Of a stretch of 62,048 bases of DNA, positions 6,278-21,399 are shown in pieces. Within the stretch, counting starts at the first letter, position 1; every line of letters begins with the position of its first letter. The notes under the pieces were generated by a model that saw nothing but the letters and a program-made list of their open reading frames with translations, had not been told where the DNA came from and did not search any database. The DNA is from Actinocatenispora rupis (lineage in GTDB: Bacteria; Actinomycetota; Actinomycetes; Mycobacteriales; Micromonosporaceae): contig NZ_BOMB01000034.1 of NCBI RefSeq assembly GCF_016861975.1, positions 1 through 62,048 on the forward strand, in the 5' to 3' direction. A program made the position numbers and the translations under genes.

Positions 6278-6317
6278 CGCAATCCACCTCCGCGGTCAGG
6301 CTGCGTAGATGAGGACG

Positions 6318-6758
6318 TCAGGGTTGTTGTTGGGCGGTCGCGGCGCCGGCCGCGCGCACGGTGAAGGTGTCGATGCCGATGACGCCGAGCAGGCGGGTGT
6401 GGCCGGTGCCGGTCACCTGCACCCGCACCCGCGTGGGGGTCGCGGTCGCCGTGCCCGACAGCCCGTTGCTGCGGATGACCCGCAGCGCGGCGGCGCGGGC
6501 CGCGGCCGGGTCGATCGGAGCTCGGGTGGTGTCGTGGGCGCGTAGGGCGGTCAGGTCGAGTTGCTGGGCTCCGGTGCGGGCGGCGGACTGCGCGAGGTCG
6601 ACCGCGCGGGTGTGGGCGGTCAGGTAAGCGCCGCCGTCGAACACCAGCCCGCCGAAGACGAGCAGCAGCGGCAGTAGGGCCAGGACGAACACCGTCGCCT
6701 GACCGGAGTCATCACGCAGGCGGCGCCAACGCCTGCCGCGGATTGGACGGCCGGTCAT
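6318..6758 (-). CDS. TadG-like pilus assembly protein
   Basis: 146 residues with a basic N-terminus, the motif DDSGQATVFVLALLPLLLVFGG forming one membrane segment (about residues 16-40), and an exported mixed C-terminal part. The sequence after the glycine lacks the glutamate at +5 of processed type IVb pilins, so it resembles the TadG class and may not be cleaved. ATG at 6758 overlaps the stop of the upstream TadE-like gene (ATGA), so translation is coupled. A much longer frame reaching 7196 would overlap that gene and was rejected. Confidence 0.85.
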   Translation of the reverse strand: MTGRPIRGRRWRRLRDDSGQATVFVLALLPLLLVFGGLVFDGGAYLTAHTRAVDLAQSAARTGAQQLDLTALRAHDTTRAPIDPAAARAAALRVIRSNGLSGTATATPTRVRVQVTGTGHTRLLGVIGIDTFTVRAAGAATAQQQP

Positions 6759-7189
6759 GGGGAGACTCCGCGAAATCTGTCGACCGGGCTCGTGGATGAG
6801 GCGGTGATCGTTCCGGGAAGCGCTCGGGCGGCCGGCAGATCCGCCAGCCGGATGTGGCAGGTGAGAATGACGGTGACCTGACCGCCGGGCAGAAACCGGC
6901 TGGTGTCCACCGCGGTGTGCAGCCGAGGGCAGGCCGCGTGGCCCTGCCGCACCGATGCGGTGGCGCTGCGCTGCGCGTCGGCCCGGGCCGAACCGGGGCT
7001 GCGGGCCAGGCTCGCCGCGCGCGCCGCCTCGTGTGCGGCGCTGGTCAGCATGGTGGATGCTCCGGTGGCGCGGCCAAACGCGACGACGATGCCGAGCAGC
7101 ACCAAGAGGATGACCACGGCGTAGATGGCCTCGATCGTGGTCGCACCACTGTCGCCGCGCAGCCTCGCCCGAAGAGTCTTCGTTTTCAT
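6755..7189 (-). CDS. TadE-like pseudopilin
   Basis: 144 residues. The N-terminus holds the sequence DSGATTIEAIYAVVILLVLLG, a type IVb prepilin site: glycine, then +1 Ala and +5 Glu, then a hydrophobic helix. After cleavage by an A24 peptidase the protein would act as a minor pilin of the Tad apparatus. The exported part contains two cysteines. ATG at 7189 overlaps the stop of the next upstream TadE-like gene, and its own stop overlaps the TadG-like start, showing a tight operon. Confidence 0.87.
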   Translation of the reverse strand: MKTKTLRARLRGDSGATTIEAIYAVVILLVLLGIVVAFGRATGASTMLTSAAHEAARAASLARSPGSARADAQRSATASVRQGHAACPRLHTAVDTSRFLPGGQVTVILTCHIRLADLPAARALPGTITASSTSPVDRFRGVSP

Positions 7190-7614
7190 CGCGCACCGTC
7201 CGGCGTGTATCGCTCGACCGGGGCTGTGGCCCGGCGCGCGATGTGCAGGTCCAGTAGCGGCAGCAGCGTCGGGACGCGCCCCTCGACGGTCACGGTGACC
7301 GTGTCGGTGCCGCGCTGCACCTCCAACCGGGGGTCGCGGATCCGGCCCAGCCCGCCGCCCTGCAGCAACTGCTGGCCGGCCGCGCGGCCGGAGGCGGCGC
7401 TGCCGCCGTCCACACGTGCGGAGTCCAGCGCCGCGCTCGCGGCGGCCTGCGCGGTGTGCTGCGCCAGCAGCCACACCGACACCTGGGCGATCAGCACGAT
7501 CCCGAGCAGCAGCACCGGCATCCAGATCACCGTCTCCACCGTCGACGACCCGCGATCGCCGCCCAGCTGGCCCCGGTGGCAGCGTCGGATCAATCTCACG
7601 ACCACGGCACTCAC
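7186..7614 (-). CDS. TadE/TadF-like pseudopilin
   Basis: 142 residues with the prepilin-type motif RGSSTVETVIWMPVLLLGIV near residues 21-40: Gly, then Ser at +1 and Glu at +5, then a hydrophobic helix. The C-terminal part is a small exported beta/alpha region. It is the second minor pilin of the operon and lies 9 bases after the Flp pilin gene. Its stop overlaps the following TadE-like start (ATGA). The family assignment rests on the cleavage motif, length and position. Confidence 0.85.
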   Translation of the reverse strand: MSAVVVRLIRRCHRGQLGGDRGSSTVETVIWMPVLLLGIVLIAQVSVWLLAQHTAQAAASAALDSARVDGGSAASGRAAGQQLLQGGGLGRIRDPRLEVQRGTDTVTVTVEGRVPTLLPLLDLHIARRATAPVERYTPDGAR

Positions 7615-7623
7615 CTCCCCCGG

Positions 7624-7860
7624 TCAGAGGGCCGACAGGGCGGCGGAGGCGATCCGGTGTAGCTCCGGGCCGAGGAACTTCCACACCGCGATCGCCACGC
7701 CAGCCGCGAGGGCGATGCCGACGACGATCTCGGCGGTCTCCGCCCCTTGGTCCGGATGAGCACGCAGCCGAGCGATCCGGGCGGCCAGAGCGGCCGTCAG
7801 CGCCGCCCACATGCCGATCGCGATGCGAGTCGAGGCGCGGTGTGCTCGATGCTGTGCCAT
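7624..7860 (-). CDS. Flp-type major pilin
   Basis: A 78-residue protein with a long basic leader and then G-AETAE followed by a hydrophobic helix (IVVGIALAAGVAIAV). Glycine before the cut and Glu at +5 are the hallmarks of type IVb Flp prepilins. The mature peptide of about 39 residues is typical of Flp pilins. The leader (about 39 residues) is long and contains an extra hydrophobic patch. The gene sits between TadC and the pseudopilins, the usual place in actinomycete Tad loci. Confidence 0.82.
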   Translation of the reverse strand: MAQHRAHRASTRIAIGMWAALTAALAARIARLRAHPDQGAETAEIVVGIALAAGVAIAVWKFLGPELHRIASAALSAL

Positions 7861-7926
7861 GAGAACCCCCGTTGGTTGATGGCAACTGCCGATGGTGTCC
7901 CTACTCGATGTCGATGTCGGTCGCGA

Positions 7927-8832
7927 TCAGGGCAGCCCGGTGCCGATACCGGCGATGCCGGCCAAGGCGGGAAACGCGATCAGCAGCACGAATCCCGCGG
8001 CGAGCAGGAACATCGGCAGGGTCATGCGTTCGGTGGCCCGGTTGGCCACCTGCTCGGCGTCGGCAAGCTGCCGAGTGCGGAGTGCTGCGGCGCGGGCCGA
8101 CAGCGACGTCCGAACCCGCGCACCTTCCGTGCCCGCCAGCGCCGTCGTGGCGGCCAGCTCCACCAGTTCCGGCACCCCGACCCGCTGCCCCAGCTCGTGC
8201 AGCGCGCTCCACGGGCTCGTACGGGTCAGCCGGGCAGTGTTGAGCGCGGCGCGGATCTGGCCGGCGGCCCAGCCGCGACACACGTCCGCGGAGTCGGTGA
8301 GCGCCTGATCAACACCCGCCCCTCCATCCGCGGCCAACACCACCAGGTCCAGATACGCCGACAGGGTGCTGCGCAGCTCCCGCCGGCGGGAACCAGCCCG
8401 TTGCCGGGCCTGCCGGTCAACCAAAAGGAACCCGCCCGCTGCGCCGGCGACAGCGGCGATGACGCTGACGGTCACGCCCAGCCCGGCCAGGGTGGCGAGT
8501 AGCGGCGCCAGCACCAGTCCAGCGATCGTGAGGGTGGCCTGTTCGGCGAGGTGCGCGGCTACGTCGGCATTCAGCAGCGCCAGGTCGCGGCGCACGACCG
8601 GGCGCGGTAGGCCCAGCCGGGTCAGCAGCGACACGGCCGGTGTGCCGAGTCGCACCACCCACCGGGATCCGGCCGCTGCCAGCGGCCGGCCCGGCGCGGC
8701 GGCGGGTTGGGTGAGGGCTGCGAGGTCGTCGGCCAGTGACCGCGGGGCGGGCCGCAGCGTCAGGGCTGCCATCGCGACGCCGGCGCCGATCAGCCCACCG
8801 GCCACCATTCCCACACCCGCGACGGCAGTCAT
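7927..8832 (-). CDS. tadC: TadC-like pilus platform protein
   Basis: 301 residues with the type II secretion F (T2SSF) fold: an N-terminal membrane helix (about 5-25), a paired hydrophobic segment (about 115-150), a cytoplasmic helical domain, and a terminal membrane helix (about 272-295). With TadB it forms the inner-membrane platform on which the TadA ATPase acts. The ATG at 8832 overlaps the tadB stop. A longer 603-codon reading of this frame is an antisense-like extension through tadB and was rejected. Confidence 0.87.
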   Translation of the reverse strand: MTAVAGVGMVAGGLIGAGVAMAALTLRPAPRSLADDLAALTQPAAAPGRPLAAAGSRWVVRLGTPAVSLLTRLGLPRPVVRRDLALLNADVAAHLAEQATLTIAGLVLAPLLATLAGLGVTVSVIAAVAGAAGGFLLVDRQARQRAGSRRRELRSTLSAYLDLVVLAADGGAGVDQALTDSADVCRGWAAGQIRAALNTARLTRTSPWSALHELGQRVGVPELVELAATTALAGTEGARVRTSLSARAAALRTRQLADAEQVANRATERMTLPMFLLAAGFVLLIAFPALAGIAGIGTGLP

Positions 8833-9713
8833 GACACGGCCTCCGATTCGGCGACTGCGGGCGCCAGCACCCGCGGAGACGGGTCGGGGGTGGCGAGTCT
8901 GTTCAGCCACCACAAACCCAGGCCATAGACACCGCCGACAACCAGCAGCACGACCTGTCCGGCGGCGCTGTGGTACGGGGCGAGGAACGGCCGGTCGGTC
9001 AGGATCAGCCCGACCGTGGCGGCCAGCACCGTGGCGGTGATGATCCGTACCGTGGTGTGCGCATGCGCCCGGCTGGTCGCGACCCGTAGTCCGGCCGCGG
9101 CGCGGGCCCGTGCGGTGTCGGCCAGCCCGGACAGGACCTGGCTGAGGTGGCGTGCTTCGTTGTCGGCGGCGTGGATCAACGCCGCTGCGGCCAGATCGGC
9201 CACCGGGTCGTTGACCTCGGCCGCGAACGCGCGCAGCGCCTCCGACATACGCCGCCCGTCCCGCAGCCGGATAGCGAGAGTGGTCACCGGAGTCGCGATC
9301 GGGTCGGGTGCGGCAGGCGCGGTGGCTTGGATCGCCTGCCGCAGGCCGGCGGCGGCCGACAGGGTGTCGCGCAGCGACTCCACCCACGTCGCGACTGCCT
9401 CCGTGCGCTCCCGCGCCGCCACACCAGCCCGGTCCGGCCCCAGCAGGCGCGGCAGCCACCACACCCCCGCCCCGGCCAGCAACGCCGCGGCCGGCCACCC
9501 GGTCACCACCCACGCCAGCGCACCTGTGACGAACGCACCCGCGATCCGCCACCGGGCACGGCGGTCCTGCCGAATGCGCCCCCACCAGCCCATCACGCGA
9601 CTGCGCCTGACGTCGGCACCGGAGTCGGGTTGGGCCTGCCAGATCGGCAGAACCAGCACCACGCCAGCAGCAATCAGCCCACCCGCCAGACCCGCGACAG
9701 CAGGAGTGTTCAT
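8829..9713 (-). CDS. tadB: TadB-like pilus platform protein
   Basis: 294 residues of the T2SSF family: an N-terminal membrane helix, a second hydrophobic pair near residues 55-85, a central cytoplasmic helical domain (about 95-210) and a C-terminal pair of helices (about 220-265). I chose the ATG at 9713 because it shares its first base with the last base of the tadA stop (TGATG). A start four codons earlier is possible. It works with TadC as the inner-membrane core of the pilus machine. Confidence 0.87.
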   Translation of the reverse strand: MNTPAVAGLAGGLIAAGVVLVLPIWQAQPDSGADVRRSRVMGWWGRIRQDRRARWRIAGAFVTGALAWVVTGWPAAALLAGAGVWWLPRLLGPDRAGVAARERTEAVATWVESLRDTLSAAAGLRQAIQATAPAAPDPIATPVTTLAIRLRDGRRMSEALRAFAAEVNDPVADLAAAALIHAADNEARHLSQVLSGLADTARARAAAGLRVATSRAHAHTTVRIITATVLAATVGLILTDRPFLAPYHSAAGQVVLLVVGGVYGLGLWWLNRLATPDPSPRVLAPAVAESEAVS

Positions 9714-11086
9714 CACGTCCACCACCCGTCGGGGGCATCCAACGCGGCCGGATCGAACCCTGCGGCGGTCAACCGGTCTCGCAGGTCGTTCGACAGTGCG
9801 CCGCCGGCCGGCCGGGCGCGCCGGTCGGGGCCGGGGCGGTAGACCTCGTTGCTGATCACCTGCTGCCCGTCGGCGCCGACCACTTCCCGGATCGAGGACA
9901 CGACCCGGGTGGCCCGATCCGGCGCGAACTCCAGATGCACCACCAGGTGCACGGCGACTCCGATCAGCAGCGCGGAGGCGTCCAACGGCAACCGCTCCTG
10001 GCCCTGCGCCGCGTACGCGGCGAGCTTGAGCAGCGCGCCGGCGGAGGTGGAGGCGTGCACGGTGCCCATCGACCCGTCACAGCCCTGCGACATCGCGTTC
10101 AGCATCGGGATGACCTCGTCGCCGCGGACCTCACCGACGATCACCCGGTCCGGCGACATCCGCAGCGCCGCCCGCACCAACGCCGCCGCGGGTACTTCTC
10201 CCTGGCCCTCGATGTTGGGCTCCCGCGCCTGCAACGCCACCACATCCGCCCGAGTCCGGTCCAAGCCAAGCTCCAGAGCGTCCTCGACAGTGATCAGCCG
10301 CTCAGCGTCCGGGATCTCGGCGGCCAACGCCCGCAGCAGGGTCGTCTTGCCCAGCGCAGTGCCCCCGGAGATCAGAATGTTGCGGCGAGCCCGGACCGCC
10401 GCGGCCAGGAACGCCCGCAACCCCGCATCCACCGTCCCCAACTCCTGCAGCGACGCCAGCGAGGTCCGGGCGAGACGGAACCGGCGCAGGCTCACGCACA
10501 CCCGCCTGCTCAGTGCCATCACGGCGAACAGCCGTGAGCCGTCCGGCAACTGCGCGCTGACCGTCGGCGAGCCGCGGTCGAAACGCCGTTCCTCCCCGCC
10601 CGCCGAGGCGACCGTCTGCCGCACCCAATCCACCAACTCCTGATCGGATGCCGCCACGGGCGCGACCTGGGCGCTGGTCCCGTCGGCGTAGCGGACGTGC
10701 ACGTTGTCGCAGCCGTTGACGTTGATCGACTCGATCCGTTCATCCGCCAACAACGCATGCATCGGCCCCAGCCCGGTCAACCGCGCCCGCACCGCCTCGA
10801 CCAGCCGACCCCGCGTGTCCTGGTCCAGAGGGCGGCTGCCGGCGGCCAGCTGGCGACCGGACTGCGCGTCCACCGCCGCCTCGATCGCCTGCCGGACCGC
10901 GGTGTCGTGCTCGGCGGGTCCTGTCGCCTCGCCTGTCCGGAGTTGGTCGGTCAGCAGGGCTGTGGCCTCGGCGTGTACTCGCGCGACCAGATCCGGATCC
11001 AGGACCGCGGCCAGGGCCGGAGTCGCCGCGATCGCCGCGCCGTTGACACGGCCACGGTGGATGTTCGGAGTGCTCGGGGTGTTCAT
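9713..11086 (-). CDS. tadA: TadA/CpaF-type pilus assembly ATPase
   Basis: 457 residues, the usual length for TadA. An N-terminal helical region is followed by the conserved ATPase: a Walker A at about 241-249 (GGTALGKTT), an aspartate/glutamate box (TVEDALEL, about 267-274), Walker B at about 313-324 (DRVIVGEVRGDE) and the HAST-type histidine (about 344). It hydrolyses ATP in the cytoplasm to drive Flp pilus assembly. Walker A has Ala-Leu where most homologues have Gly-Ser, but the lysine and threonine are intact. Its ATG overlaps the tadZ stop. Confidence 0.95.
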   Translation of the reverse strand: MNTPSTPNIHRGRVNGAAIAATPALAAVLDPDLVARVHAEATALLTDQLRTGEATGPAEHDTAVRQAIEAAVDAQSGRQLAAGSRPLDQDTRGRLVEAVRARLTGLGPMHALLADERIESINVNGCDNVHVRYADGTSAQVAPVAASDQELVDWVRQTVASAGGEERRFDRGSPTVSAQLPDGSRLFAVMALSRRVCVSLRRFRLARTSLASLQELGTVDAGLRAFLAAAVRARRNILISGGTALGKTTLLRALAAEIPDAERLITVEDALELGLDRTRADVVALQAREPNIEGQGEVPAAALVRAALRMSPDRVIVGEVRGDEVIPMLNAMSQGCDGSMGTVHASTSAGALLKLAAYAAQGQERLPLDASALLIGVAVHLVVHLEFAPDRATRVVSSIREVVGADGQQVISNEVYRPGPDRRARPAGGALSNDLRDRLTAAGFDPAALDAPDGWWT

Positions 11087-11967
11087 GCCCGACCTCCCTG
11101 TCGGTGGCCGTGTCCGTTGCTCGACAACGCCCCCTCGTCGGGCGGGTCATACATCTCCAGATAGGCCGGCGCGGCGGGCCGCGACCCGCCCGACGACACC
11201 GCGGACCGGGCGAGTACCGATGTCGTCGTGGTCTGGGCGTCGGGGCGCGCCGAGGGCATGGGCAGTTCCCGGGCCAGATGCTCGGCTATCTGACGGACGC
11301 CGCGTGTCAGAGCGCTTCGTGGGGGAAGGCCCGCGCCGGTGGCCAGCACCCGCACCGCACGCAGCTCGAACGGGACGTGTCCGATCACCGGGACCGGGTC
11401 GACGGTCTGCTGCACATCCCGCAGCCGATACGGCCCCTCCCCGCACACGACCAGCCAGCGCCGTGACACCCCAGCCGCGTCCCGCAGCTCGTCCAGCAAC
11501 CCGATCCCGGCCGCCAGCCCGTCCAGTGTCGGCGGAGCACACACCAGCACCCCGGCCGCAGCCGCAGCCAACGGCCACGCCACCGAACCGGGCGCCAGGT
11601 GCCCCACATCCAACAGCGCGAGCCCAGCTGCGGCGTCGACCCGCTGCGGCGCGGCGGCCACCGCTGTCACCGCCGCGCTCGCCTGCCGAGGCGACACCGG
11701 CGCCGCCACCACGTCCACCCCGCAGCCGGGCACCCGCCGCACACACGACCGCAACACCGCCGCGTCGGCGGTACCGGATCCGGCCGAGGCGGCCAACTCG
11801 ACCAGTCCGGGCCCTGCCGGCAGCCGGAACCGGGCCGCCAGCGACCCGCCCGACGGGTCAGCCTCGACGACCGGTGTCCAGCGTGGGTCCGGCCAACAGG
11901 CCGCCACCGCGACCGCGGTCGTTGTTGTCCATCCGCCGGTCTTCGCCCGGCACACCACGATGTTCAT
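11083..11967 (-). CDS. TadZ/CpaE-like localisation ATPase with degenerate P-loop
   Basis: 294 residues with a MinD/ParA-like N-terminal fold starting MNIVVCRAKTGGWTTTTAV. At the place of the deviant Walker A (normally KGGVGKT) this protein has KTGGWTTTT: the glycine-lysine pair that contacts phosphates is missing. VVEADPSGG (about 33-41) corresponds to the switch I region and ALLDVGHL to Walker B. TadZ homologues place the pilus machine at cell poles. The operon position before tadA supports the call. Loss of ATP binding is inferred from the motif. The C-terminal 50 residues are disordered. Confidence 0.72.
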   Translation of the reverse strand: MNIVVCRAKTGGWTTTTAVAVAACWPDPRWTPVVEADPSGGSLAARFRLPAGPGLVELAASAGSGTADAAVLRSCVRRVPGCGVDVVAAPVSPRQASAAVTAVAAAPQRVDAAAGLALLDVGHLAPGSVAWPLAAAAAGVLVCAPPTLDGLAAGIGLLDELRDAAGVSRRWLVVCGEGPYRLRDVQQTVDPVPVIGHVPFELRAVRVLATGAGLPPRSALTRGVRQIAEHLARELPMPSARPDAQTTTTSVLARSAVSSGGSRPAAPAYLEMYDPPDEGALSSNGHGHRQGGRA

Positions 11968-11999
11968 CGCACCCCCCGTGCGGTTGATCGAGGCCGCTG

Positions 12000-12677
12000 T
12001 CAGTGCGTGGCGAGTAGCGTCACCGCGGGTGCGGAGGCGATCGCCTGTGCCCCGGCCAGCGGGACCACCAGCTCCACGACCGTGGACCCGTCGCCCGCAC
12101 CCGACGATCGCAGCGACAGGACCACTCCGGCCACGTCCGGTGCGGTGCCCGAGTCACGGGCGCCGCTGCCGGTGTTCGGACCCGGCACGAATAGCACGTC
12201 GACCGGGGAGCCGGCCGCGATGGACGGCGGGAACTGGCCAGGCTTGAGCGTCACCGCCGCCACCGCCTGACCCGGGCCTGGCCAGCGCTGCGGCCCGACC
12301 ATCCACTCGGCGAACACCGCGCCCGCTGCCAGCGGCACCGACGCCCGTTGACCGATCACGGTGTCGCGCTGATCCCACGACACCGTCGGCACCGAGTCAT
12401 CCACCGCAACCTTCGCCGACCGTAGGTCCGCCGCGGACACCGTCCGGCCGCTGACGATCGGGCGAGACACGACCACCACATCGGTGCGCGGGTTGGTCGC
12501 TGCCGCGACACCGGCCGCGATCCCGGCACCGGCGCCGATCGCCAACACCGCACCTGCCAGCCGCAGACCGTGGCGGCGCAGCCACCGCCGCGGCGCACTC
12601 GCTCGCTGCATCGCCGGGCCGGCGGGCGACGCGTCGTTGAGCTGTTTTTGGGTAGCAGGTACCGCCGTGGTAGCCAT
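12000..12677 (-). CDS. CpaB/RcpC-like SAF-domain pilus protein
   Basis: 225 residues. One N-terminal membrane helix (about 37-60, LRLAGAVLAIGAGAGIAAGVA) is followed by a SAF domain (about 65-130, VVVVSRPIVSGRTVSAADL) and a beta-rich extracytoplasmic region. RcpC/CpaB proteins bridge the pilus to the envelope. It precedes tadZ by 32 bases. The start at 12677 has an AGGAG-like site upstream. Actinomycete versions are shorter than those of Gram-negative bacteria, as here. Confidence 0.82.
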   Translation of the reverse strand: MATTAVPATQKQLNDASPAGPAMQRASAPRRWLRRHGLRLAGAVLAIGAGAGIAAGVAAATNPRTDVVVVSRPIVSGRTVSAADLRSAKVAVDDSVPTVSWDQRDTVIGQRASVPLAAGAVFAEWMVGPQRWPGPGQAVAAVTLKPGQFPPSIAAGSPVDVLFVPGPNTGSGARDSGTAPDVAGVVLSLRSSGAGDGSTVVELVVPLAGAQAIASAPAVTLLATH

Positions 12678-12716
12678 CGCCCCACTCCTTTGACTCGTTA
12701 TCGGCTTCTCAGACCA

Positions 12717-12736
12717 GACAGGCCAACCAGCCTGTC
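12717..12736 (-). terminator. Small hairpin between the secreted-protein gene and cpaB
   Basis: GACAGGC at 12717-12723 and GCCTGTC at 12730-12736 form a 7-bp stem with a 6-base loop in the 74-base gap after the upstream minus-strand gene. It could be an attenuator that lowers expression of the downstream pilus genes. The stem is short. Confidence 0.4.
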
Positions 12737-12751
12737 CACAATGGAGCTACG

Positions 12752-13669
12752 TCACGAGGTGTTGATCGCTTGAGATTCCAGAACTCGTATCCGCGTACTG
12801 TCCGATGTGGACAGATCGTTGACGGTTCCCGAGTGTCCGGCGCCGCGCCAACGCACCTGCCACACCATCGTCGCGGTCACCGTGAACCGCCGGCCCGGCT
12901 GGGTTGCCGACGAGCGGGTGAACGTGTGCCCGCAGTCCGGACTCGCGGCGGTTGGATCGGTGCCGGCGCGCCACGGTGTTCCCGGTCCGGTACAGGTGAT
13001 CTGGGCGCCGTCGCTCGACGACCACACCACCCGCACCGGCGACGCCGTCGCCGTCACACGCACCCCACCCGCCGACGCCGTCTTTGACACCGGCGCCCAC
13101 GCCGTGACCCACCACCACACCGGCACACCCACCAACGTCACCGCCCGCGGATTCATCACCACCCGCGGCGCCGGAATCGCCAGCTGCTCCACCGCGATCG
13201 CCGCCAACTCCTGCGGCGACAGTTCAATCTTCTTCGGCGGATTGCCCGGGATCCATTGCGGGCCACCGAACTGCGTGTTCCAGCCGTTGCCGGAGTTCGT
13301 GCACACCCGCTCGTACCAGCCACCCCGGCCCTTCGGCTGCTTCCTGCCCGCCGGACGCTTCGTCGGCTTGTAGTAGCAGCCATCGCCACCCACCGAACCC
13401 AAGCTCGGGTCATCGCAAGGGATCACTCGTCCTGATGGGTTGCGACACGCCCGCGGGGTGGCGCCGTGACCCGACGCCTGCTGCCGTGGCCCTTGTCTGC
13501 CCCTTGACCCCGACTTGCCAGCAGTACCCGCCGAGACCCGACACGCTGCTGGGTGGCGATCGCAGTCAACGCCACCGATGCGGTCGTGGGCAGCGACCGG
13601 ACCTGCGGCCACTATGGCGACGACCGCAGCCAGAGCCGCACCGATGAGTGTCCGTCGTGTCAGGTGCAT
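12752..13669 (-). CDS. Secreted protein of the Tad locus, function unknown
   Basis: 305 residues with a clear signal peptide (basic start, hydrophobic stretch to about residue 25, VAAH cleavage region). A low-complexity Gly/Arg/Gln region with several cysteines (residues 35-110) follows, then a WY/GN-rich segment, and a C-terminal beta-rich region (about 150-300) with two more cysteines. Similar exported proteins occur beside Tad operons in actinomycetes; I do not recognise a named domain. It overlaps the end of the upstream lipoprotein gene by 10 bases, so it belongs to the pilus operon. It may be a surface or pilus accessory protein. Confidence 0.7.
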   Translation of the reverse strand: MHLTRRTLIGAALAAVVAIVAAGPVAAHDRIGGVDCDRHPAACRVSAGTAGKSGSRGRQGPRQQASGHGATPRACRNPSGRVIPCDDPSLGSVGGDGCYYKPTKRPAGRKQPKGRGGWYERVCTNSGNGWNTQFGGPQWIPGNPPKKIELSPQELAAIAVEQLAIPAPRVVMNPRAVTLVGVPVWWWVTAWAPVSKTASAGGVRVTATASPVRVVWSSSDGAQITCTGPGTPWRAGTDPTAASPDCGHTFTRSSATQPGRRFTVTATMVWQVRWRGAGHSGTVNDLSTSDSTRIRVLESQAINTS

Positions 13670-14265
13670 GACCCCACCTCATGGGCTGCAAAGTCCGTGA
13701 CGCGCCAGCCCAGCCCAGGCACGTTCTCGACGACCGCGACGACGAGGTGCTTTCCACCGGGCTCATCGTCGATCAATCCACCCTCCGCGTGGTACACGAG
13801 CCAGTGGGAGGCATCAGCGCAGTCCTGAACGTCCACCTCGGCAGGCGTCATGGCCGGCTTGGCACCGGTCACGGTGGGCTTCAGGACGACATTGCCCTTA
13901 CTCACCTGCATCGCTGCCTTATCCCGCGCCAGCGAGTCGGTGATGGTCTTGCGCGCCTTACCCGCCGTGTACCGGGCGATCAAGGGATCGCGGACATCCG
14001 ACGTCCTGCTCGCGTGCACGAACGCGTTCCACATGCCGCGGTAGGCAACGAGCGCTTCCCGCTCCGCCTTCGCTCGTGCAGTCACCGACTGCGTGGGCGA
14101 GGGCCGACTGGCAGACGGTGTCGGGTCGGCAGCATGCCCACGGTCGGGGCTGCTGCAGGCGGTCAGACCTGTGCACAGCATCCCCGCGGCGAGGACGACG
14201 TGGCCGAGGGCGGCCAGGTTCGGGTATCGGCCGGCCCCGGTGCGGTGGGGGTGCTGGTGGGCCAT
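13660..14265 (-). CDS. Putative lipoprotein at the head of the pilus operon
   Basis: 201 residues. The hydrophobic N-terminal segment ends in a lipobox (LTAC, cysteine near residue 32), so it should be a lipid-anchored exported protein. A Ser/Pro/Thr linker follows, then a compact domain of about 140 residues of the kind found in actinomycete lipoproteins (NTF2-like is possible). ATG at 14265 has a perfect AAGGAGAT site; the longer frame start at 14304 lacks one. It is the first gene of the operon, so its promoter should lie in the 62-base gap before the permease gene or further upstream. Confidence 0.75.
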   Translation of the reverse strand: MAHQHPHRTGAGRYPNLAALGHVVLAAGMLCTGLTACSSPDRGHAADPTPSASRPSPTQSVTARAKAEREALVAYRGMWNAFVHASRTSDVRDPLIARYTAGKARKTITDSLARDKAAMQVSKGNVVLKPTVTGAKPAMTPAEVDVQDCADASHWLVYHAEGGLIDDEPGGKHLVVAVVENVPGLGWRVTDFAAHEVGSCT

Positions 14266-14327
14266 CGTGATCTCCTTGCCCGCGGGTGGTCGGTGGTGGG
14301 TCAACGAGTGGGTGGGTGTGTCGGTGT

Positions 14328-15365
14328 TTACGGGGATTGGTCTACCGCGGTGAGCGTGGCGAGTCGAGCCCGCTCAGTCACCGGCTGAGCCGCTGACCCC
14401 GCGCCGCCAGGGTCAAGGTGGTGTTGCCTCCTCGCGTGGTGGCGGGCGGAGAAGGCGGTGAGGGCCGGTGCGGCGAGGGTGGTGACGATCAGGGCGACGC
14501 CGGCTTGGGCGGTGGCGGCGGGGACGTAGGGGGTCCAGGTGGGGTCGGTGGTGGCGGCGATCGCGGGGAGCAGGGGTGCGGTGATGGTGCAGGCGGTGGC
14601 CGCCCAGCCGACCGTGCCCGGCTGATGCAGGAACAGCCGCCAGCCGGTAACCACCAGACCGCCCGAGACCAGGCCGGCAACCACACCGAGCACGAGGCCG
14701 GTTGGCGTCTGCCGGGCGATGAAGTGTAGGTCGAGGCGGCAGCCGAGGCTGAACGCGACGAGTACGACCAGTACCGGTATCGGTGCCCGCAGCATGGTCC
14801 GGCATCCGGGGGCCAGGTGGCCGGCGGCTGCACCGATGGCGAGCGGGAGCGTCGCATCGAGCACAGACCGCCAGGCGACGGTGCCGGTGTGGTGGCTGAT
14901 TGCCAGCAGCAGCAGGATCGGCACGACGGGGGCGGAGTTGAGGGTGGAGGCGACCGATCCGGCCCAGCCGTCCGGTGCAGTGCCGTGGCGGCGGGCGATG
15001 GCCAGCCACATGGCCGGTGAGGTCGATACCGCGACCGCGGCGACCGCGAGCGGAGACACGTGCGCGATGCCGTCCGGCCCGGCGGCCACGCCGTAGGCGA
15101 GCACGGCGGCGCCGGTGACGACGGTGGCGCCGGTGAGGATGATCCCGACGCGGCCGGCGACCGGTCGCAGGCTGGCGGGGGTGATCTGGGCGCCGACACA
15201 GATCAGCAGGATGGTGATGTAGGCGTAGGCGCCGCCGGTGACCGCCCCGGTGAACGGACCCATCCCGCCGCCCGCGGGTCGCCATGTGCCGACGACTGCT
15301 CCTGCGGCCAGCGGCAGCAGCACGGGGGCGCCGGGAAGACGAGCCGCAACACTTAGGACACGCAT
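14328..15365 (-). CDS. KdgT-type (2-keto-3-deoxygluconate permease family) transporter
   Basis: 345 residues, nearly all hydrophobic, with about ten membrane helices and the conserved glycine/proline pattern of the 2-keto-3-deoxygluconate permease family (segments such as YAYITILLICVGAQI and STSPAMWLAIARRHG). ATG at 15365 lies inside the end of the DAHP synthase gene (13-base overlap), so the two are co-translated. No sugar-acid catabolic gene is nearby. In this context it may move a precursor or product of the neighbouring biosynthetic genes. That role is inference. Confidence 0.8.
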   Translation of the reverse strand: MRVLSVAARLPGAPVLLPLAAGAVVGTWRPAGGGMGPFTGAVTGGAYAYITILLICVGAQITPASLRPVAGRVGIILTGATVVTGAAVLAYGVAAGPDGIAHVSPLAVAAVAVSTSPAMWLAIARRHGTAPDGWAGSVASTLNSAPVVPILLLLAISHHTGTVAWRSVLDATLPLAIGAAAGHLAPGCRTMLRAPIPVLVVLVAFSLGCRLDLHFIARQTPTGLVLGVVAGLVSGGLVVTGWRLFLHQPGTVGWAATACTITAPLLPAIAATTDPTWTPYVPAATAQAGVALIVTTLAAPALTAFSARHHARRQHHLDPGGAGSAAQPVTERARLATLTAVDQSP

Positions 15366-16525
15366 GTCGACGACCCTTCGGTGCTCGTGGCACGCGGTGC
15401 GGAGTGCACGGGGCGGGGCGGGGTGCGGCGGGTACGGATGCGGTGGCGTCGGACGCTGGCTGCGAACGCGAGGCTGGTGAGTGCCTTGCGGGTGTCGTCC
15501 CAGCCGATGCACGCGTCGGTGATCGACTGCCCGTAGGTCAGCTGGTGCGGGTGTTGCGGGTCGAGGTTCTGGCGGCCGGACAGTAGGTGCGATTCGATCA
15601 TCACGCCGCGAACATGGTAGGTCGGGTCGCGGAGTTCGTCGGCGATCTGGGCGATGACGCGGTTCTGCTCATGGTGGTCCTTGCCGGAGTTGCCGTGCGC
15701 GGCGTCGACCACGACCGTGTCGGGCAATCCCCTAGCGCGCAGCAGATCCGCGGCAGCTACGACATGGTCATGGTCGTAGTTGGGGCCGCGTTCGCCGCCG
15801 CGCAGGATCAGGTGGGTGTAAGTGTTGCCGGAGGTCATCACCTGCACCAGATCCCCCGCAGCGTCGACACCGAGGGTGGACTGGGTGGCCGTCGCGCAGG
15901 CGATGGCGTTGACCGCGGGCAGGATCGCCCCGTCCAGCCTGTTCTTCATGCCGATCGGCATGGGCAGCGTGGCGGCGAGTTGCCGCAGGATCGGGGTCTC
16001 CACGGTGCGGGCGCCGATCGTGGCGTCGGAGACGAGGTCCTGCAGGTAGGCGGCGATCAGCGGATCGCACCACTCGACCGCGACCGGCATCCCCGCCGAC
16101 AGCAGCGATCGCAGCGTCGAACGCGCCAGCAGCAGCCCGCTGGCCACATCCGCCGTGCCGGTCAGGCCGGGATCACGCACCATTCCCGCCCACCCCAACG
16201 CCGTCCGCGGCTTGTCGACGAACGCCCGCATCACCACCAGCAGGTCGCCGGACAGCTGGTCGGCCAGGGCGGCGAGCCGGTGGGCGTACTCCAGCGCGGC
16301 GGCCGGGTCGTGCAGCGAGCACGGTCCGACGACCACCAGCAGCCGGTCGTCAGCCCCGGTGAGGGCCTCGATGGTCTGCAGCCGGCCGGCGCGCACGGTG
16401 CGGGCCTGGCGAGGGTCGAGCGGCAGGGCGCGGGTCAGATCGCCGGGGGTGGGCAGGCGCCGCCCTGGTCCCCGCTGGGGGTGATCGTCGGGGACCAAAC
16501 GGAGTGGCCGGGCTGTGGTGGTCAT
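15353..16525 (-). CDS. aroF: 3-deoxy-7-phosphoheptulonate (DAHP) synthase, type I
   Basis: 390 residues. Makes DAHP from phosphoenolpyruvate and erythrose 4-phosphate, the first step to aromatic amino acids. Family landmarks are present: VVGPCSLHDP (about 66-75), MRAFVDKPRT (about 99-108), the IGMKNRLDG segment, RGGERGPNY and DAAHGNSGKDH near the metal and substrate site. The length is slightly above the usual 350-360, with a 30-residue Arg/Pro-rich tail. ATG at 16525 follows GGGGAAAC. It sits between a permease and a prenyltransferase with a repeat-filled promoter region upstream. It looks like a pathway-dedicated copy that boosts aromatic precursors. Confidence 0.95.
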   Translation of the reverse strand: MTTTARPLRLVPDDHPQRGPGRRLPTPGDLTRALPLDPRQARTVRAGRLQTIEALTGADDRLLVVVGPCSLHDPAAALEYAHRLAALADQLSGDLLVVMRAFVDKPRTALGWAGMVRDPGLTGTADVASGLLLARSTLRSLLSAGMPVAVEWCDPLIAAYLQDLVSDATIGARTVETPILRQLAATLPMPIGMKNRLDGAILPAVNAIACATATQSTLGVDAAGDLVQVMTSGNTYTHLILRGGERGPNYDHDHVVAAADLLRARGLPDTVVVDAAHGNSGKDHHEQNRVIAQIADELRDPTYHVRGVMIESHLLSGRQNLDPQHPHQLTYGQSITDACIGWDDTRKALTSLAFAASVRRHRIRTRRTPPRPVHSAPRATSTEGSSTCVS

Positions 16526-16637
16526 CGAGGTTTCCCCTTTCCGCGGTGCCGGTCGGCGTGTCCGTGCGGGCCGCGAAGGTGTGTCCGAACGGCTGATGCC
16601 TGCCTGCTGAGCGTCACCGACGATGACCGTGAGCACA

Positions 16638-16761
16638 TCCGTAGAGGTACGGACAGTGCCCGGTCTCCGTACCGTGCCGCGAGGGTTCCGGTATCGATCG
16701 GGTCCGTACCGGTGTCGCGAGTCGCGCGTAACCTCCGTACACTCCGCCCCAAACTCCGTAC
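16638..16761. promoter_or_regulatory. Cluster of TCCGTAC/GTACGGA heptamers upstream of aroF
   Basis: TCCGTAC occurs at 16666, 16703, 16734 and 16755, and its reverse GTACGGA at 16647. A TCCGTA at 16638 pairs with TACGGA at 16648 as a 6-bp inverted repeat with a 4-base gap. Two copies are 21 bases apart. The 367-base gap between the DAHP synthase start and the prenyltransferase stop holds no gene I can support. The same heptamer fills the divergent promoter at 18.8 kb, so a shared regulator is likely. Confidence 0.7.
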
Positions 16762-16892
16762 TGCATCGACGCAGCGTGACCGAAGCTGGCGGGATATCAC
16801 CGGCTGTGACGAGGGCGGGCGTCGGCGACGAGGTGTCGCACGTTCGGATGACACCTCACCCGCTCGGCCGGCCGATCGAGGTCCGGGGCTGG

Positions 16893-17966
16893 TCAGGCCG
16901 TGGTGAAGCCCGGACGCGGTGCTGTGGCGTGGTACGCCTCCGAGGACAGATACACCGTCAGTCCTGGGGGATGCGCGCCGAGCCGCAGCGACACGTGCGG
17001 GATCAGTCCGACCCCGTCTGCCAGGTCGCGGCGGGCCACGCCGGCGATGGCGCGGTCAATCAGGCCGGCGTCGTGCCCGTAGCGGTGGGCCAGGGTGAGG
17101 GCCCGGTCGCGGGCCTGTGCGTCGTCGGTGACGTGGCAGCGGATCGGCACGTACAGGCTGTATCCGCTGGGCTGGTCGGTGTCGCTCTGGACGAAGGTGA
17201 AGCCCGACACGAGTGGGCGGGCGCCGTGGCCGATGCTGTCGCCGGCGGCGAGGCGGCAGAACTGCGCCACCTCGTCGAGGTCGATGCCCGGCACCGCTAC
17301 GGCTGCGGCGACGGCGTCTTCGGCGGTGGCGGTGGGGGTGTGCGAGAGGTAGATCTTGATCCGGGACCGGGCGCCGTGGTGCAGGTCGAGTGCGACGAAG
17401 CTGAATCCGGCTCCCGGGCGGCGCGCGGCAGAGGCCAGGGTTCGGTGGGCGGCGCCGAGGCCGAGTCGTTGCATCGCCTCGGCGACCAGGTGCCAACTGT
17501 GGTGGGCGTCGCGGCACTGCGGGTTGAGGTAGACCTTGATCTGTGGCGGGTGCTGGTGTCGGAACACCAGGGAGAACCAGAGCGCGAAGGGGCTGACCGG
17601 GGGTGTGCTGAGGAACAGGTCGGCGATCTTCTCATAGCGCGACAGGTCCAGGTTGTAGCGGCGGGACCACCGCTGCAGGAGTCGTTGCGCGGCAGCAAGG
17701 TTGGCCTCACAGCCGGGGTCGTCTGCCACGGCCTCGCCGAGAATCCGGACTGTGGGGCGCTGGCCGTGGTCGAGCGCGACGGAGAACTCGACCGGGGAAT
17801 GGTCGTCAGAGATGTCCGAGGGCCAGGGCGGCGTCGTCGCATCGCACGCTGCGCCGGTGGCGAGCAGATCGGCGAGTATGTCGTTCACGGCAGTCGTGTC
17901 GTCGTAGCCGGCCACGGTCATCAGCGCTGCCGCTTGGGACCTGACGTGGGCGGACAGCGACGCCAT
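16893..17966 (-). CDS. DMATS-type aromatic prenyltransferase
   Basis: 357 residues, matching bacterial members of the tryptophan dimethylallyltransferase (ABBA-fold) family. Visible landmarks: the acidic residue of VEFSVALD near 60, RPTVRIL (about 70-75), IKVYLNPQ (about 143-150), RIKIYLSH (about 202-209), and VSLRLG..LTVYLSSEAYH near the end. The Lys/Arg and Tyr residues in these strands bind and shield the prenyl diphosphate. The family attaches a C5 or longer prenyl group to indole or other aromatic rings, in the cytoplasm without metal dependence. It lies 12 bases after the HDO gene, so the two are co-transcribed. The substrate cannot be read from sequence; tryptophan-like compounds are the default guess. 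Confidence 0.88.
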   Translation of the reverse strand: MASLSAHVRSQAAALMTVAGYDDTTAVNDILADLLATGAACDATTPPWPSDISDDHSPVEFSVALDHGQRPTVRILGEAVADDPGCEANLAAAQRLLQRWSRRYNLDLSRYEKIADLFLSTPPVSPFALWFSLVFRHQHPPQIKVYLNPQCRDAHHSWHLVAEAMQRLGLGAAHRTLASAARRPGAGFSFVALDLHHGARSRIKIYLSHTPTATAEDAVAAAVAVPGIDLDEVAQFCRLAAGDSIGHGARPLVSGFTFVQSDTDQPSGYSLYVPIRCHVTDDAQARDRALTLAHRYGHDAGLIDRAIAGVARRDLADGVGLIPHVSLRLGAHPPGLTVYLSSEAYHATAPRPGFTTA

Positions 17967-17978
17967 CCGCCGATCCCT

Positions 17979-18677
17979 TCAGCGCCGATGGCGTGCTGGC
18001 GCGAGCGCGGCAGACGTGCCCCCAGCGGCATCGGCGACGGCGCGCTCGGCGATCCGGTCGGCCACGATCGTCATCACCTGCCAGGCGTGGTCGAGAAGGG
18101 TGACGACCTCGTCTTCGGTCCAGTCGGTGCGCTCGCGCAGCACCTGGTAGCCCATCTCGACGTGCTCGGCGTCGACGTCGTTGTGGTGCTGGAAGTAGAT
18201 GTCGTCGGGGAAGGTGCTTGCGACGCGGGTGAAGAAGGTCAGTGCGGCGGACTCCACGGCCAGGTGTGCCAGCACCGCGCGCAGCACGCCGGGCAGGGTC
18301 CGGAGGGCGTCCACGATCCAGGCGGCACCCATCTCGATGACCGGGTCCCAGACCACAGGCGCATCGACACCGTGGTGGGCTCGGCTGGCGGCCAGGAGCT
18401 TGTTGTGGCCGGTCTCGTCGTCGCGATGGTCGATGGCCAGCGCCCGTAGCGACGGGTCCGTCTCGTGCTCGACCCGCACGGTGATCATGCGTTGGAACGC
18501 ATCCGACCACGGCTGCAGGTAGGTCGTGACCGCCGCCTTGGTTGCCGGATCGGTGGTGTCGTCGGCCAGCAGCCGGCACAGCCGCGACCCGGCGAACGCC
18601 TCCTGCTGGCGCCGGTTGTGCTCAGCGACCCGCTCAACCCGCGAGGTACCCGTCAGGTCGTCGACGTTCGTGCTCAT
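17979..18677 (-). CDS. Haem-oxygenase-like di-iron oxidase (HDO) family protein
   Basis: 232 residues, all helical. Candidate metal ligands sit in patterns typical of the haem-oxygenase-like di-iron oxidase superfamily: HRDDETGH (H84, E88, H91), E142 in a hydrophobic helix, and HHNDVDAEHVEMG (H165, D169, H172). Members cleave or oxidise amino-acid and fatty-acid derived substrates (for example UndA, BesC, SznF, AetD). It is the first gene of the prenyltransferase transcript and faces the regulator gene across a repeat-rich promoter. An oxidative step on a prenylated aromatic amino acid is plausible but inferred. TenA/PqqC-like proteins share the fold and are the main alternative. Confidence 0.78.
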   Translation of the reverse strand: MSTNVDDLTGTSRVERVAEHNRRQQEAFAGSRLCRLLADDTTDPATKAAVTTYLQPWSDAFQRMITVRVEHETDPSLRALAIDHRDDETGHNKLLAASRAHHGVDAPVVWDPVIEMGAAWIVDALRTLPGVLRAVLAHLAVESAALTFFTRVASTFPDDIYFQHHNDVDAEHVEMGYQVLRERTDWTEDEVVTLLDHAWQVMTIVADRIAERAVADAAGGTSAALAPARHRR

Positions 18678-18806
18678 CGTGCTCGCCTCATCCCCAGCTC
18701 GGACGACATTGCACGGCCACCGCTTGCCCTGTTCATTGCCTCGATGGCCACGGTGCTCCGATATGAGACTCGCGTCGGTTGTACCGGGCGCACGTGGATC
18801 GGCGCA

Positions 18807-18899
18807 TCCGTACAGGCGGCTCTCCGTACCGCCTCCGTACCGCCGCAGTACGGAGAGCTGAGGGGCTTGTACGGAGAGAACGACGAATCAGGTCCGTAC
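18807..18899. promoter_or_regulatory. Divergent promoter with six TCCGTAC/GTACGGA heptamers
   Basis: TCCGTAC occurs at 18807, 18823, 18834 and 18893, and GTACGGA at 18848 and 18869. CTCCGTAC (18833-18840) and GTACGGAG (18848-18855) form a perfect 8-bp palindrome with a 7-base gap. The copies at 18823 and 18834 are direct repeats 11 bases apart, and those at 18848 and 18869 are 21 apart (both read GTACGGAGAG). The region lies between the HDO gene (minus) and the LuxR-type regulator gene (plus). Confidence 0.78.
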
Positions 18900-18966
18900 C
18901 CGCCGACAGAACCCCGACCTCCACGACCCGATTTACCCGCTTTGAACCATATCGAGATCGCACAAA

Positions 18967-21399
18967 GTGACGATAGGGTGGTTTATAGTCAACTCTGTGT
19001 CTGATATTGGCCGTTCGGTTGGCCTACCGCTGGACTACGGCCCGCTGATCGGCCGGACACAGGAGGAGCAGCGGGCCGTCAGCATGCTGTCCCGGAGCCG
19101 GCTGGTCACGCTGACCGGCACCGGTGGGGTCGGCAAAACGCGGCTGGCGATACGGATTGCCAGCCGGGTCGCGGAGTCGATGCCGGGCGGGGCGTGGATG
19201 GTGGAACTGGCGGGCCTGCCACCGCAGACGGCCCTTGAGCAGCTGTGGACCACCATCGCCCGCAGCGTGCACCTGTACTCCCACCAGTCGGGGCTTGATG
19301 TCGTCGCGCGACACCTGCGCGATCATCCCTCGCTGCTGGTGCTGGACAACTGCGAGCACCTCCTCGCACCGGTGCGCGAGGCGGTCACCGCGCTGCTCGC
19401 CGCCGTGCCAACGCTGCGGGTCCTTGCCACTAGTCGCCAGCCTCTGCACCTGCCCGAGGCTGGTGAACACGTCCTCGATCTGGCTCCGTTGAGCACGGAC
19501 GATGCGGTGGCCGCGTTCCTCGCCTACGCCCACGCCGGAGGCGCCACGCAGCACCTGGTCCCAGACGCTCGTCAACCTGGGCAGGAGTCCACCGCATCGA
19601 ACGGGCTGGACCGCCGCCAGATCGCGATGCTGGTGAATGCTGTCGATGGACTGCCACTGGCGGTGGAGATCATCAGCCGGTGGGCGGCCACCCTGCCGCT
19701 GGACGAACTGACCGACTCCGTCACGGACAACCCGTGGGTGGTCGTCGACATCGATCCCAGCAGCGACGGCCGCCACAGCACTTTGCGCCGCATCTACGAC
19801 TGGTCCTGGCGGCTGTGCAGTGACGAAGAGAGAATCCTGTGGCAGTGGATCAGCCTGTTCCCGAAAGCGACTGATCAGTCGACGATTGTCGAGGTGTGCG
19901 CGGCCAGCCAAGTCGATCGGCTCGCCATCGCCCGGGCCGTCGCGGGCCTGCGCGACAAGCGGATCCTCGCCGCCGACCTCGACCACACCGGCACCCCGCG
20001 GCTCGGCCTTCTGGCCACCGCACGCGCCTACGGCGCCGAGCAACTCCTCGCCTCCGGCCACGACGTGACCGCACGCGCCGCTTACTGCAGCCACTACCGC
20101 GCCCTGCTCGCCCACGCCGCAGCCACCTACGCCGCACCTGACGAGATCGCCATCCTGCGCGACGTCAACGAAAAGCTCGACCACATCAGGACCGCGATCG
20201 ACTACGCCATCACCGACGCGGACCTGACTACAGCGCGCGACATGGTCACCAACATCACCCGCACCAGGGCGCCGTTCCTGCACGGGTGGCTCGGCGACGC
20301 GCGGAGCCTGACCGACCGCGTGCTCGACGCCGGCGGACTCGACACCGTCACCACCGCCGACGAGGCGCTGCAACTCGGCGCAGTCATGGCCGCCGATGCC
20401 TGGATCACCCTCACACAGGGATACCCGGGCCGGGCACGTGCGCTGATCGCCGACTGCCACCACCTGCACAAGCAGTGGCAGCTGTCTCCCTCCCCACCGC
20501 TGCTGTTCGCCGAAGGAGCCGTACTCGCGCTCGGCGTGCCGGATCCCGATCCGCGCGCCGTGGAGCTTCTCACCGCTGCCCGCAATGCATTCGGCGGCGA
20601 CCCGATGCTGCGCGGTGACCGTCTCATGGTCACCATGATCTGGTCGATGTCGGTCAGCGCCAACGGTTCCCCCGACGCGGAGGACGCCGCGGCGGCGTTC
20701 CTCGACGACGCGCACGCGGGCGGCGCTCCGTGGACCGAAGCGTGGGCCGACTGGGACGGCGCGTACGCGGCACTCGTCGGCGGACACTACGACGATGCCA
20801 ACGACCGGTGCCGGCGTGCCCTCGCTCTGATGGCGAGTATCGGCGACCAGTGGGGACTGACCTGGGCGCTGCTGATGTCCGCCGCGATCAGCGCAGACAG
20901 CCTCGACCCGGCCAACCCCAACAAACGCCAAGCCAAACGGGCAGCCTGGCTCGCCGCCGCCGCCGAACAACGCCGCGACACGATCGGTGTCCGCATCGAA
21001 GGACTCGCGCCCATGGCCGCGCTCCACCACCGGATCCTGACCCGCGTCGCCGGCATCCTCGACCCAGCCACCTTCGACCGGGCACTGACCGACGGACGAC
21101 GCCGACACACCGACGCCGTCGAGTACGCCCTCGACGACCGGCTCTCCCGCAGACCATCCCCCACAGACACCCTGACCCGCCGCCAACGCGACGTCGCCAC
21201 CCTCATGCTGCCCACCGCCGACGGCCACCGCCGCAGCGACCGCGACATCGCCACCGAACTCGGCATCGGTGTCCGCACCGTCGAAACCCACGTCGCGAAC
21301 ATCCTGCGCCAACTCGGCCTACAGAACCGCACCGAGCTGCAACCCCACCACCTCAACCAACCCACCGCTAACGCGGACTCGCCCCCGACCGAACCCTGA
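18967..21399 (+). CDS. NB-ARC ATPase with LuxR-type HTH (LAL-like regulator)
   Basis: 810 residues if started at the GTG at 18967; a GTG at 18997 is an equally good start. An NB-ARC/AAA domain begins with Walker A GTGGVGKT (about 51-58) and Walker B LLVLDNCEHL (about 121-130), and includes the GLPLAVEI motif. A TPR-like helical middle follows. The C-terminus is a LuxR-family helix-turn-helix (about 735-795: LTRRQRDVATLM ... GVRTVETHVANILRQLGL). Such ATP-dependent activators often control neighbouring secondary-metabolite genes. It is divergent from the HDO/prenyltransferase operon across the heptamer array, so it is the prime candidate to act there. Confidence 0.9.
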   Translation: MTIGWFIVNSVSDIGRSVGLPLDYGPLIGRTQEEQRAVSMLSRSRLVTLTGTGGVGKTRLAIRIASRVAESMPGGAWMVELAGLPPQTALEQLWTTIARSVHLYSHQSGLDVVARHLRDHPSLLVLDNCEHLLAPVREAVTALLAAVPTLRVLATSRQPLHLPEAGEHVLDLAPLSTDDAVAAFLAYAHAGGATQHLVPDARQPGQESTASNGLDRRQIAMLVNAVDGLPLAVEIISRWAATLPLDELTDSVTDNPWVVVDIDPSSDGRHSTLRRIYDWSWRLCSDEERILWQWISLFPKATDQSTIVEVCAASQVDRLAIARAVAGLRDKRILAADLDHTGTPRLGLLATARAYGAEQLLASGHDVTARAAYCSHYRALLAHAAATYAAPDEIAILRDVNEKLDHIRTAIDYAITDADLTTARDMVTNITRTRAPFLHGWLGDARSLTDRVLDAGGLDTVTTADEALQLGAVMAADAWITLTQGYPGRARALIADCHHLHKQWQLSPSPPLLFAEGAVLALGVPDPDPRAVELLTAARNAFGGDPMLRGDRLMVTMIWSMSVSANGSPDAEDAAAAFLDDAHAGGAPWTEAWADWDGAYAALVGGHYDDANDRCRRALALMASIGDQWGLTWALLMSAAISADSLDPANPNKRQAKRAAWLAAAAEQRRDTIGVRIEGLAPMAALHHRILTRVAGILDPATFDRALTDGRRRHTDAVEYALDDRLSRRPSPTDTLTRRQRDVATLMLPTADGHRRSDRDIATELGIGVRTVETHVANILRQLGLQNRTELQPHHLNQPTANADSPPTEP
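18984..18997 (+). promoter_or_regulatory. Possible -10 element for a leaderless regulator mRNA
   Basis: TATAGT at 18984-18989 is in an AT-rich island and lies 7 bases before a GTG (18997) that is in frame with the regulator gene. That spacing would give a leaderless transcript, a common arrangement in actinomycetes. No clear ribosome site precedes either candidate start. Confidence 0.35.

What the first reader, a model, noticed from the sequence alone, without database searches (positions are those of the whole stretch)
14328..21399. Compact DMATS prenyltransferase / HDO candidate biosynthetic locus
An aromatic prenyltransferase (16893-17966), a haem-oxygenase-like di-iron oxidase (17979-18677), a dedicated-looking DAHP synthase, a KdgT-type permease and a divergent NB-ARC/LuxR regulator sit together with no core polyketide or peptide synthase. 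The gene pair is 12 bases apart, so it is one transcript. HDO enzymes are known to cleave or oxidise amino acids (AetD acts on a tryptophan). A prenylated, oxidatively modified aromatic amino acid is my inference; I know of no described pathway with this exact set.
Basis: partly seen in the sequence, partly recalled or inferred. Interest (0 to 1): 0.82.

Follow-up and report, generated by a model that had tools for sequence, protein, structure and literature searches.

The report
Prenyltransferase paired with AetD-like oxidase
A two-gene unit in a soil actinomycete pairs an enzyme that probably attaches a prenyl group to tryptophan with an iron enzyme resembling one known to turn tryptophan into a nitrile; the same pairing, sometimes fused into one protein, recurs in several actinomycete families, so it is probably a real pathway that can be tested.

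The parts
17979..18677 (-). HDO: haem-oxygenase-like diiron oxidase, 232 aa; putative ligands E88, H91, E142, H165, D169, H172
16893..17966 (-). DMATS-type aromatic (probably tryptophan) prenyltransferase, 357 aa
   Evidence: Pfam Trp_DMAT 57.7 bits, cut-off 25; PDB 6zrx E 7e-95 and 6-dimethylallyltryptophan synthase 7w8u E 1e-53; nested among tryptophanase-linked DMATS
18807..18899 (.). Array of six GTACGGA sites between HDO and regulator, putative operator
   Evidence: 0 of 1000 shuffles reach six; an array of five at the counterpart in Actinocatenispora comari, L011
16638..16761 (.). Array of six TACGGA sites (five of them GTACGGA) upstream of DAHP synthase
   Evidence: 0 of 1000 shuffles; spacings 10, 18 and 21 shared with the DAHPS/regulator gap of A. 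comari L062
18967..21399 (+). STAND/NB-ARC-like protein with C-terminal LuxR HTH, 810 aa; candidate binder of the arrays
   Evidence: Pfam; GTACGG/CCGTAC enriched upstream of 5 of 5 in-genus copies (window included), 0 of 5 from other genera
15353..16636 (-). Class I (AroFGH-type) DAHP synthase; start GTG 16636 or ATG 16525. Possibly co-regulated, not part of the conserved pair
   Evidence: NCBIfam TIGR00034 349 bits, cut-off 173; found with KdgT and the regulator without DMATS/HDO in A. comari
14328..15368 (-). KdgT-family permease, likely start ATG 15368; linked to the Tad locus rather than to DMATS/HDO
   Evidence: Pfam KdgT; relatives in 3 of 250 family genomes, the window's included; near a Tad locus in another genus too (L075)

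Best explanation
The DMATS prenylates the indole ring of L-tryptophan. The HDO, a 3-His/3-carboxylate diiron enzyme resembling AetD, then oxidatively trims the amino-acid side chain of that prenyl-tryptophan. The likeliest product is a dimethylallyl-indole-3-carbonitrile (AetD chemistry); a 3-methylindole (SktA chemistry) is next. The pair is thus a third version of the known actinomycete prenyl-tryptophan pathway, with an HDO where tryptophanase (Type A) or a flavin monooxygenase (Type B) stands elsewhere. In the window it may be controlled by the STAND/LuxR regulator through GTACGGA arrays, which also lie before a DAHP synthase that could raise aromatic precursor supply. Shown: gene pairing, fusion, invariant ligand columns, fold class, DMATS clade, arrays. 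Inferred: substrate, order of steps, prenyl position, product, regulator binding.
Confidence: 0.6

Rival explanations
1. The HDO acts on prenyl-tryptophan but with another HDO reaction: side-chain cleavage to a prenyl-skatole (SktA-like), N-oxygenation to an oxime or nitro compound, desaturation, or oxidation of the prenyl group itself.
For: HDOs with like substrates and ligand sets give different products; AetD and SktA are the review's example (PMC13108848 passages). The HDO family pairs with two distant DMATS groups, so a prenylated indole may be the shared substrate rather than one particular side chain.
Against: AetD is the best VIA-align match of both models. Positions E142-1 and E142+2 are V/L and A/G, nearer to AetD (M, A) than to SktA (T, T), by offset only.
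Confidence: 0.3
2. The five genes are one dedicated biosynthetic cluster with DAHP synthase as precursor supply and KdgT as exporter.
For: Shared operator-like arrays before DAHPS and HDO; all five contiguous.
Against: DAHPS, KdgT and the regulator stand together next to a Tad locus without DMATS/HDO in A. comari; no DAHPS or KdgT in the DNA read for the 36 other HDO-DMATS rows; in A. comari C151 none in the 0.8 kb left after DMATS.
Confidence: 0.2
3. The HDO is not a diiron oxygenase but a TenA/PqqC-like or regulatory protein.
Confidence: 0.05

Closest known systems
Type A and Type B conservon-linked indole prenyltransferase clusters (Ozaki et al. 2013, PMC3617294; passages seen)
   Same: DMATS of the kind paired with tryptophanase; a partner enzyme that would act on the prenyl-Trp side chain; conservon present in 28 of 32 HDO loci
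   Different: The partner is an HDO instead of tryptophanase or flavin monooxygenase; fused to DMATS in 8 loci; extra nucleotidyltransferase-like gene in 30 of 32; the window copy has no conservon and a STAND/LuxR regulator
AetD, tryptophan nitrile synthase (PMC10654658, PMC11611611; passages seen)
   Same: Haem-oxygenase-like fold; 3H/3C ligand pattern with equal in-helix spacing; best VIA-align match of two models; expected Trp-derived substrate
   Different: 13-15% identity; D/E exchanged at two ligand positions; paired with a prenyltransferase; reaction unknown
SktA, 5-bromo-Trp to 5-bromoskatole (PMC13108848; passages seen)
   Same: HDO on a ring-substituted tryptophan (expected here)
   Different: Neither its sequence nor a structure was compared here
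SznF, an HDO with an extra domain (PMC13108848; passages seen)
   Same: HDO domain in a multidomain protein, for the fused relatives
   Different: C-terminal cupin in SznF, N-terminal DMATS here

Membership tests
HDO (haem-oxygenase-like dimetal oxidase/oxygenase) superfamily | Haem-oxygenase-like helical fold | tested here: met
HDO superfamily | Three His and three carboxylate ligands on core helices | tested here: met
HDO superfamily | Bound dimetal cluster that reacts with O2 | not testable with these tools
   needs purified protein
AetD-type tryptophan nitrile synthase | AetD as closest solved structure | tested here: inconclusive
   ranks 1-11 in VIA for two models, but mixed order in Foldseek
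AetD-type tryptophan nitrile synthase | Detectable sequence homology to AetD | tested here: not met
   no AetD hit with one sequence at E up to 1 or two profiles at E up to 10
AetD-type tryptophan nitrile synthase | Converts a tryptophan to indole-3-carbonitrile | not testable with these tools
   needs assay
Bacterial DMATS tryptophan prenyltransferases | DMATS sequence family | tested here: met
   PF11991 57.7 bits, cut-off 25; but TIGR03429 101.5 bits is under its cut-off 163.85; PDB 6zrx, 7w8u
Bacterial DMATS tryptophan prenyltransferases | Prenylates the ring of L-Trp | not testable with these tools
   inferred from relatives
Ozaki Type A/B cluster | Conservon next to the prenyltransferase | tested here: not met
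   window: no cvnA-D hit in 62 kb; relatives: 28 of 32 distinct loci
Ozaki Type A/B cluster | Tryptophanase or flavin monooxygenase as partner | tested here: not met
   no tryptophanase hit in the window or in the 37 HDO rows; a monooxygenase was not searched as such, but the five genes of the interval are all accounted for

The most novel reading that the evidence does not exclude
A third, undescribed class of actinomycete prenyl-tryptophan pathway ('Type C'), mostly travelling with conservon signalling cassettes, in which an AetD-like diiron oxidase, in some genera physically fused to the prenyltransferase, makes a prenylated indole-3-carbonitrile in one step from prenyl-tryptophan; one HDO family serves two distant DMATS lineages and in the window has taken the place of tryptophanase.
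Probability: 0.35. Interest if true: 0.8.

Novelty: new variant of a known kind. Interest (0 to 1): 0.7.

Why it matters
About a dozen HDOs have a validated reaction, and the review passages I saw describe two that act on tryptophans (PMC13108848). This gives a coherent HDO family of 32 distinct loci with a predicted substrate supplied by its own gene partner, natural fusions that tie the two steps together, and a natural comparison series (tryptophanase, monooxygenase, HDO) on one prenyl-tryptophan scaffold. It also adds to the conservon puzzle: why these G-protein-like cassettes keep travelling with prenyl-indole enzymes.

Tried and rejected
Sequence searches of the PDB with the HDO, alone or as profiles of 9 and 28 sequences, found no HDO, so fold comparison was needed. 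The match in G175 (E 9.8e-4, 42% over 50 residues) was dropped from the counts as chance: neither its 3 kb locus L009 nor its 18 kb surroundings L019 showed a DMATS or HDO relative. The HDO profile in 394 genomes of the class found only the window and one other, so the family is rare there; the 27-locus scan depends on two conserved peptides and will miss diverged members. PF11991 does not report the conservon-type DMATS of G012, so one search is no census of DMATS, and only 30 of its 55 match rows came with DNA. The idea that the regulator is dedicated to prenyl-indoles was weakened by A. comari C6, where it stands with DAHPS-KdgT-Tad alone. KdgT as product exporter was set aside for lack of linkage. 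The promoter scan found no sigma-70-type site, and its five terminator-like sites lie inside the regulator gene. Paper searches bearing on a DMATS-HDO combination: 0 papers with three of the four terms; 20 of 173 listed; 1 paper; 15 of 17 listed; 3; 15 of 40,284 listed; 6 of 8 listed; 15 of 892 listed. I saw only these listings, so absence is claimed for them and not for print as a whole; the library is open-licence PMC, and most subscription papers are missing. Searches looked up single terms; no paper held names 6zrx.

Full report
What is there. HDO (17979-18677) and DMATS (16893-17966) are on the minus strand, 12 bases apart, with AGGGA in the gap. DAHP synthase and a KdgT-family permease follow on the same strand after 256-367 bases, depending on the DAHPS start; the regulator (18967-21399) is divergent. 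The window's genus is Actinocatenispora: a same-genus genome, G070, has contigs of the same lengths as records of A. comari and matching loci; naming the genus is my inference from this.

The pair is real. In 250 genomes of the family, 8 further HDO loci in 7 genomes turned up, plus one chance-level match that I dropped. A scan of genome contigs (84,980 species by its description) with an HDO alignment gave 27 loci in Actinocatenispora, Amycolatopsis, Plantactinospora, Kibdelosporangium, Rhodococcus, Pseudonocardia, Streptacidiphilus and Actinoplanes. A scan of 394 genomes of the class added one. With the window this is 37 rows. DMATS is next to the HDO on the same strand in 37 of 37 rows. In 10 rows (8 distinct: G119, G078, G103, G058 of one genus, two of which are Plantactinospora records; Rhodococcus rhodnii; three Kibdelosporangium) both are one open reading frame, DMATS first. 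So the pairing is not chance.

What else travels with it. In 28 of 32 distinct loci the DNA read holds cvn genes (27 with A-D, one with A, B, D); one search shows them beside the pair in the named loci. [quoted passage not shown] The four without are the window, its A. comari counterpart, L044, and L085, of which only 3.6 kb was read. In 30 of 32 a gene with the GS...SDIDL pattern of Pol-beta-type nucleotidyltransferases is present (Pfam NTP_transf_2 E 6e-4 and NCBIfam ANT(9) E 6e-6, both under cut-off; the motif reading is from memory). The window and A. comari C151 lack both and have the STAND/LuxR regulator; A. comari C151 adds a SAM methyltransferase.

DAHPS and KdgT. In A. comari contig C6 the order is Tad-pilus genes, KdgT, DAHPS, regulator (73% identical), prepilin peptidase, then a carbon-nitrogen hydrolase and a conservon, with no DMATS or HDO in that stretch. 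In contig C84 DAHPS-KdgT lies by another Tad locus with no regulator relative in the 20 kb read. In the window DMATS-HDO sits exactly between DAHPS and the regulator. No other HDO row has DAHPS or KdgT in the DNA read (for the A. comari counterpart only 0.8 kb remain beyond DMATS). These two genes are therefore not part of the conserved pair.

A shared operator. TACGGA sites form an array of six before DAHPS (16638-16761) and six between HDO and the regulator (18807-18899). None of 1000 resamplings of either region reaches this. Of 34 places in the 7.8 Mb genome with two GTACGGA words 2-40 bases apart, 6 fall in these two regions. In A. comari the DAHPS/regulator gap (L062) has five sites, sharing spacings 10, 18 and 21 with the window's DAHPS array; the regulator/methyltransferase gap (L011) has five, with one pair 21 apart as in the window's HDO array. 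DAHPS of contig C84, without a regulator nearby, has a single site. Upstream of 5 of 5 in-genus regulators (window included; 53-100% identical) GTACGG/CCGTAC words are enriched (at most 10 of 1000 resamplings reach the count in each); of five from other genera (36-41%) none is. The resamplings are first-order Markov. Binding by the regulator is inference.

What the DMATS is. The window DMATS matches 6zrx (E 7e-95) and a 6-dimethylallyltryptophan synthase (1e-53). The tree carries a long-branch warning for the deep split and for one row (L109). In the family, 26 of 30 DMATS loci read, of 55 match rows, have a tryptophanase relative beside DMATS; two of these lyases, L060 and L061, were scored and pass NCBIfam's tryptophanase subfamily cut-off but not its equivalog cut-offs. 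L060 is in the window's own genome, contig C12. HDO-linked DMATS of the conservon type are far away; the one tested is nearest the indolactam prenyltransferase MpnD (4yl7, E 7e-28). The HDO tree instead groups the window HDO with in-genus conservon-type HDOs, with modest support (90/83). Discordant histories suggest a partner swap: one HDO family serves two DMATS lineages.

How it works. Ozaki et al. (PMC3617294, passages) described conservon-linked prenyl-Trp clusters with tryptophanase (Type A, to 6-dimethylallylindole-3-carbaldehyde) or a flavin monooxygenase (Type B, to 5-dimethylallylindole-3-acetonitrile). Here an HDO holds that place. AetD turns 5,7-dibromo-Trp into an indole-3-carbonitrile and SktA turns 5-bromo-Trp into a bromoskatole (PMC13108848, passages). 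A prenyl group on the ring in place of bromine gives the prediction: prenyl-Trp to prenyl-indole-3-carbonitrile, or else the skatole. I put 0.6 on side-chain oxidation of prenyl-Trp and about 0.35 on the nitrile.

Novelty. None of the papers listed to me combined HDO and DMATS (long results were cut to 15-20 rows, and the library is open-licence only). I rate it a new variant of a known kind: new partner enzyme, fusion and HDO family in a known pathway class.

Noticed in passing
window 3209-14304 and L062, L063, L075: A Tad-pilus locus (LysM protein, Tad and TadE domains, T2SSF protein, TadA-type ATPase, SAF domain) is linked to a KdgT permease and, in the genus, to a class I DAHP synthase whose end overlaps the KdgT start; why a pilus locus carries these two genes is unexplained.
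   Followed up: partly
L062:14760-15707 and 16119-20000: In A. comari contig C6 a carbon-nitrogen hydrolase (nitrilase superfamily) lies between the regulator/prepilin peptidase and a conservon.
   Followed up: no
L021-L046, just after the HDO: A Pol-beta-type nucleotidyltransferase-like gene follows DMATS-HDO in 26 of the 27 named loci; its substrate is unknown.
   Followed up: partly
L060 (own genome contig C12) and L061 (G050): The window's genome also has a DMATS-tryptophanase (Type A-like) pair; the sister genome G050 has one with a conservon and a methyltransferase 63% identical to that of A. comari C151.
   Followed up: yes
L125 and L119, 350 bases upstream of the regulator: More distant in-genus regulators keep GTAC-rich upstream regions with few exact TACGGA words, as if operator and regulator co-evolve.
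   Followed up: partly
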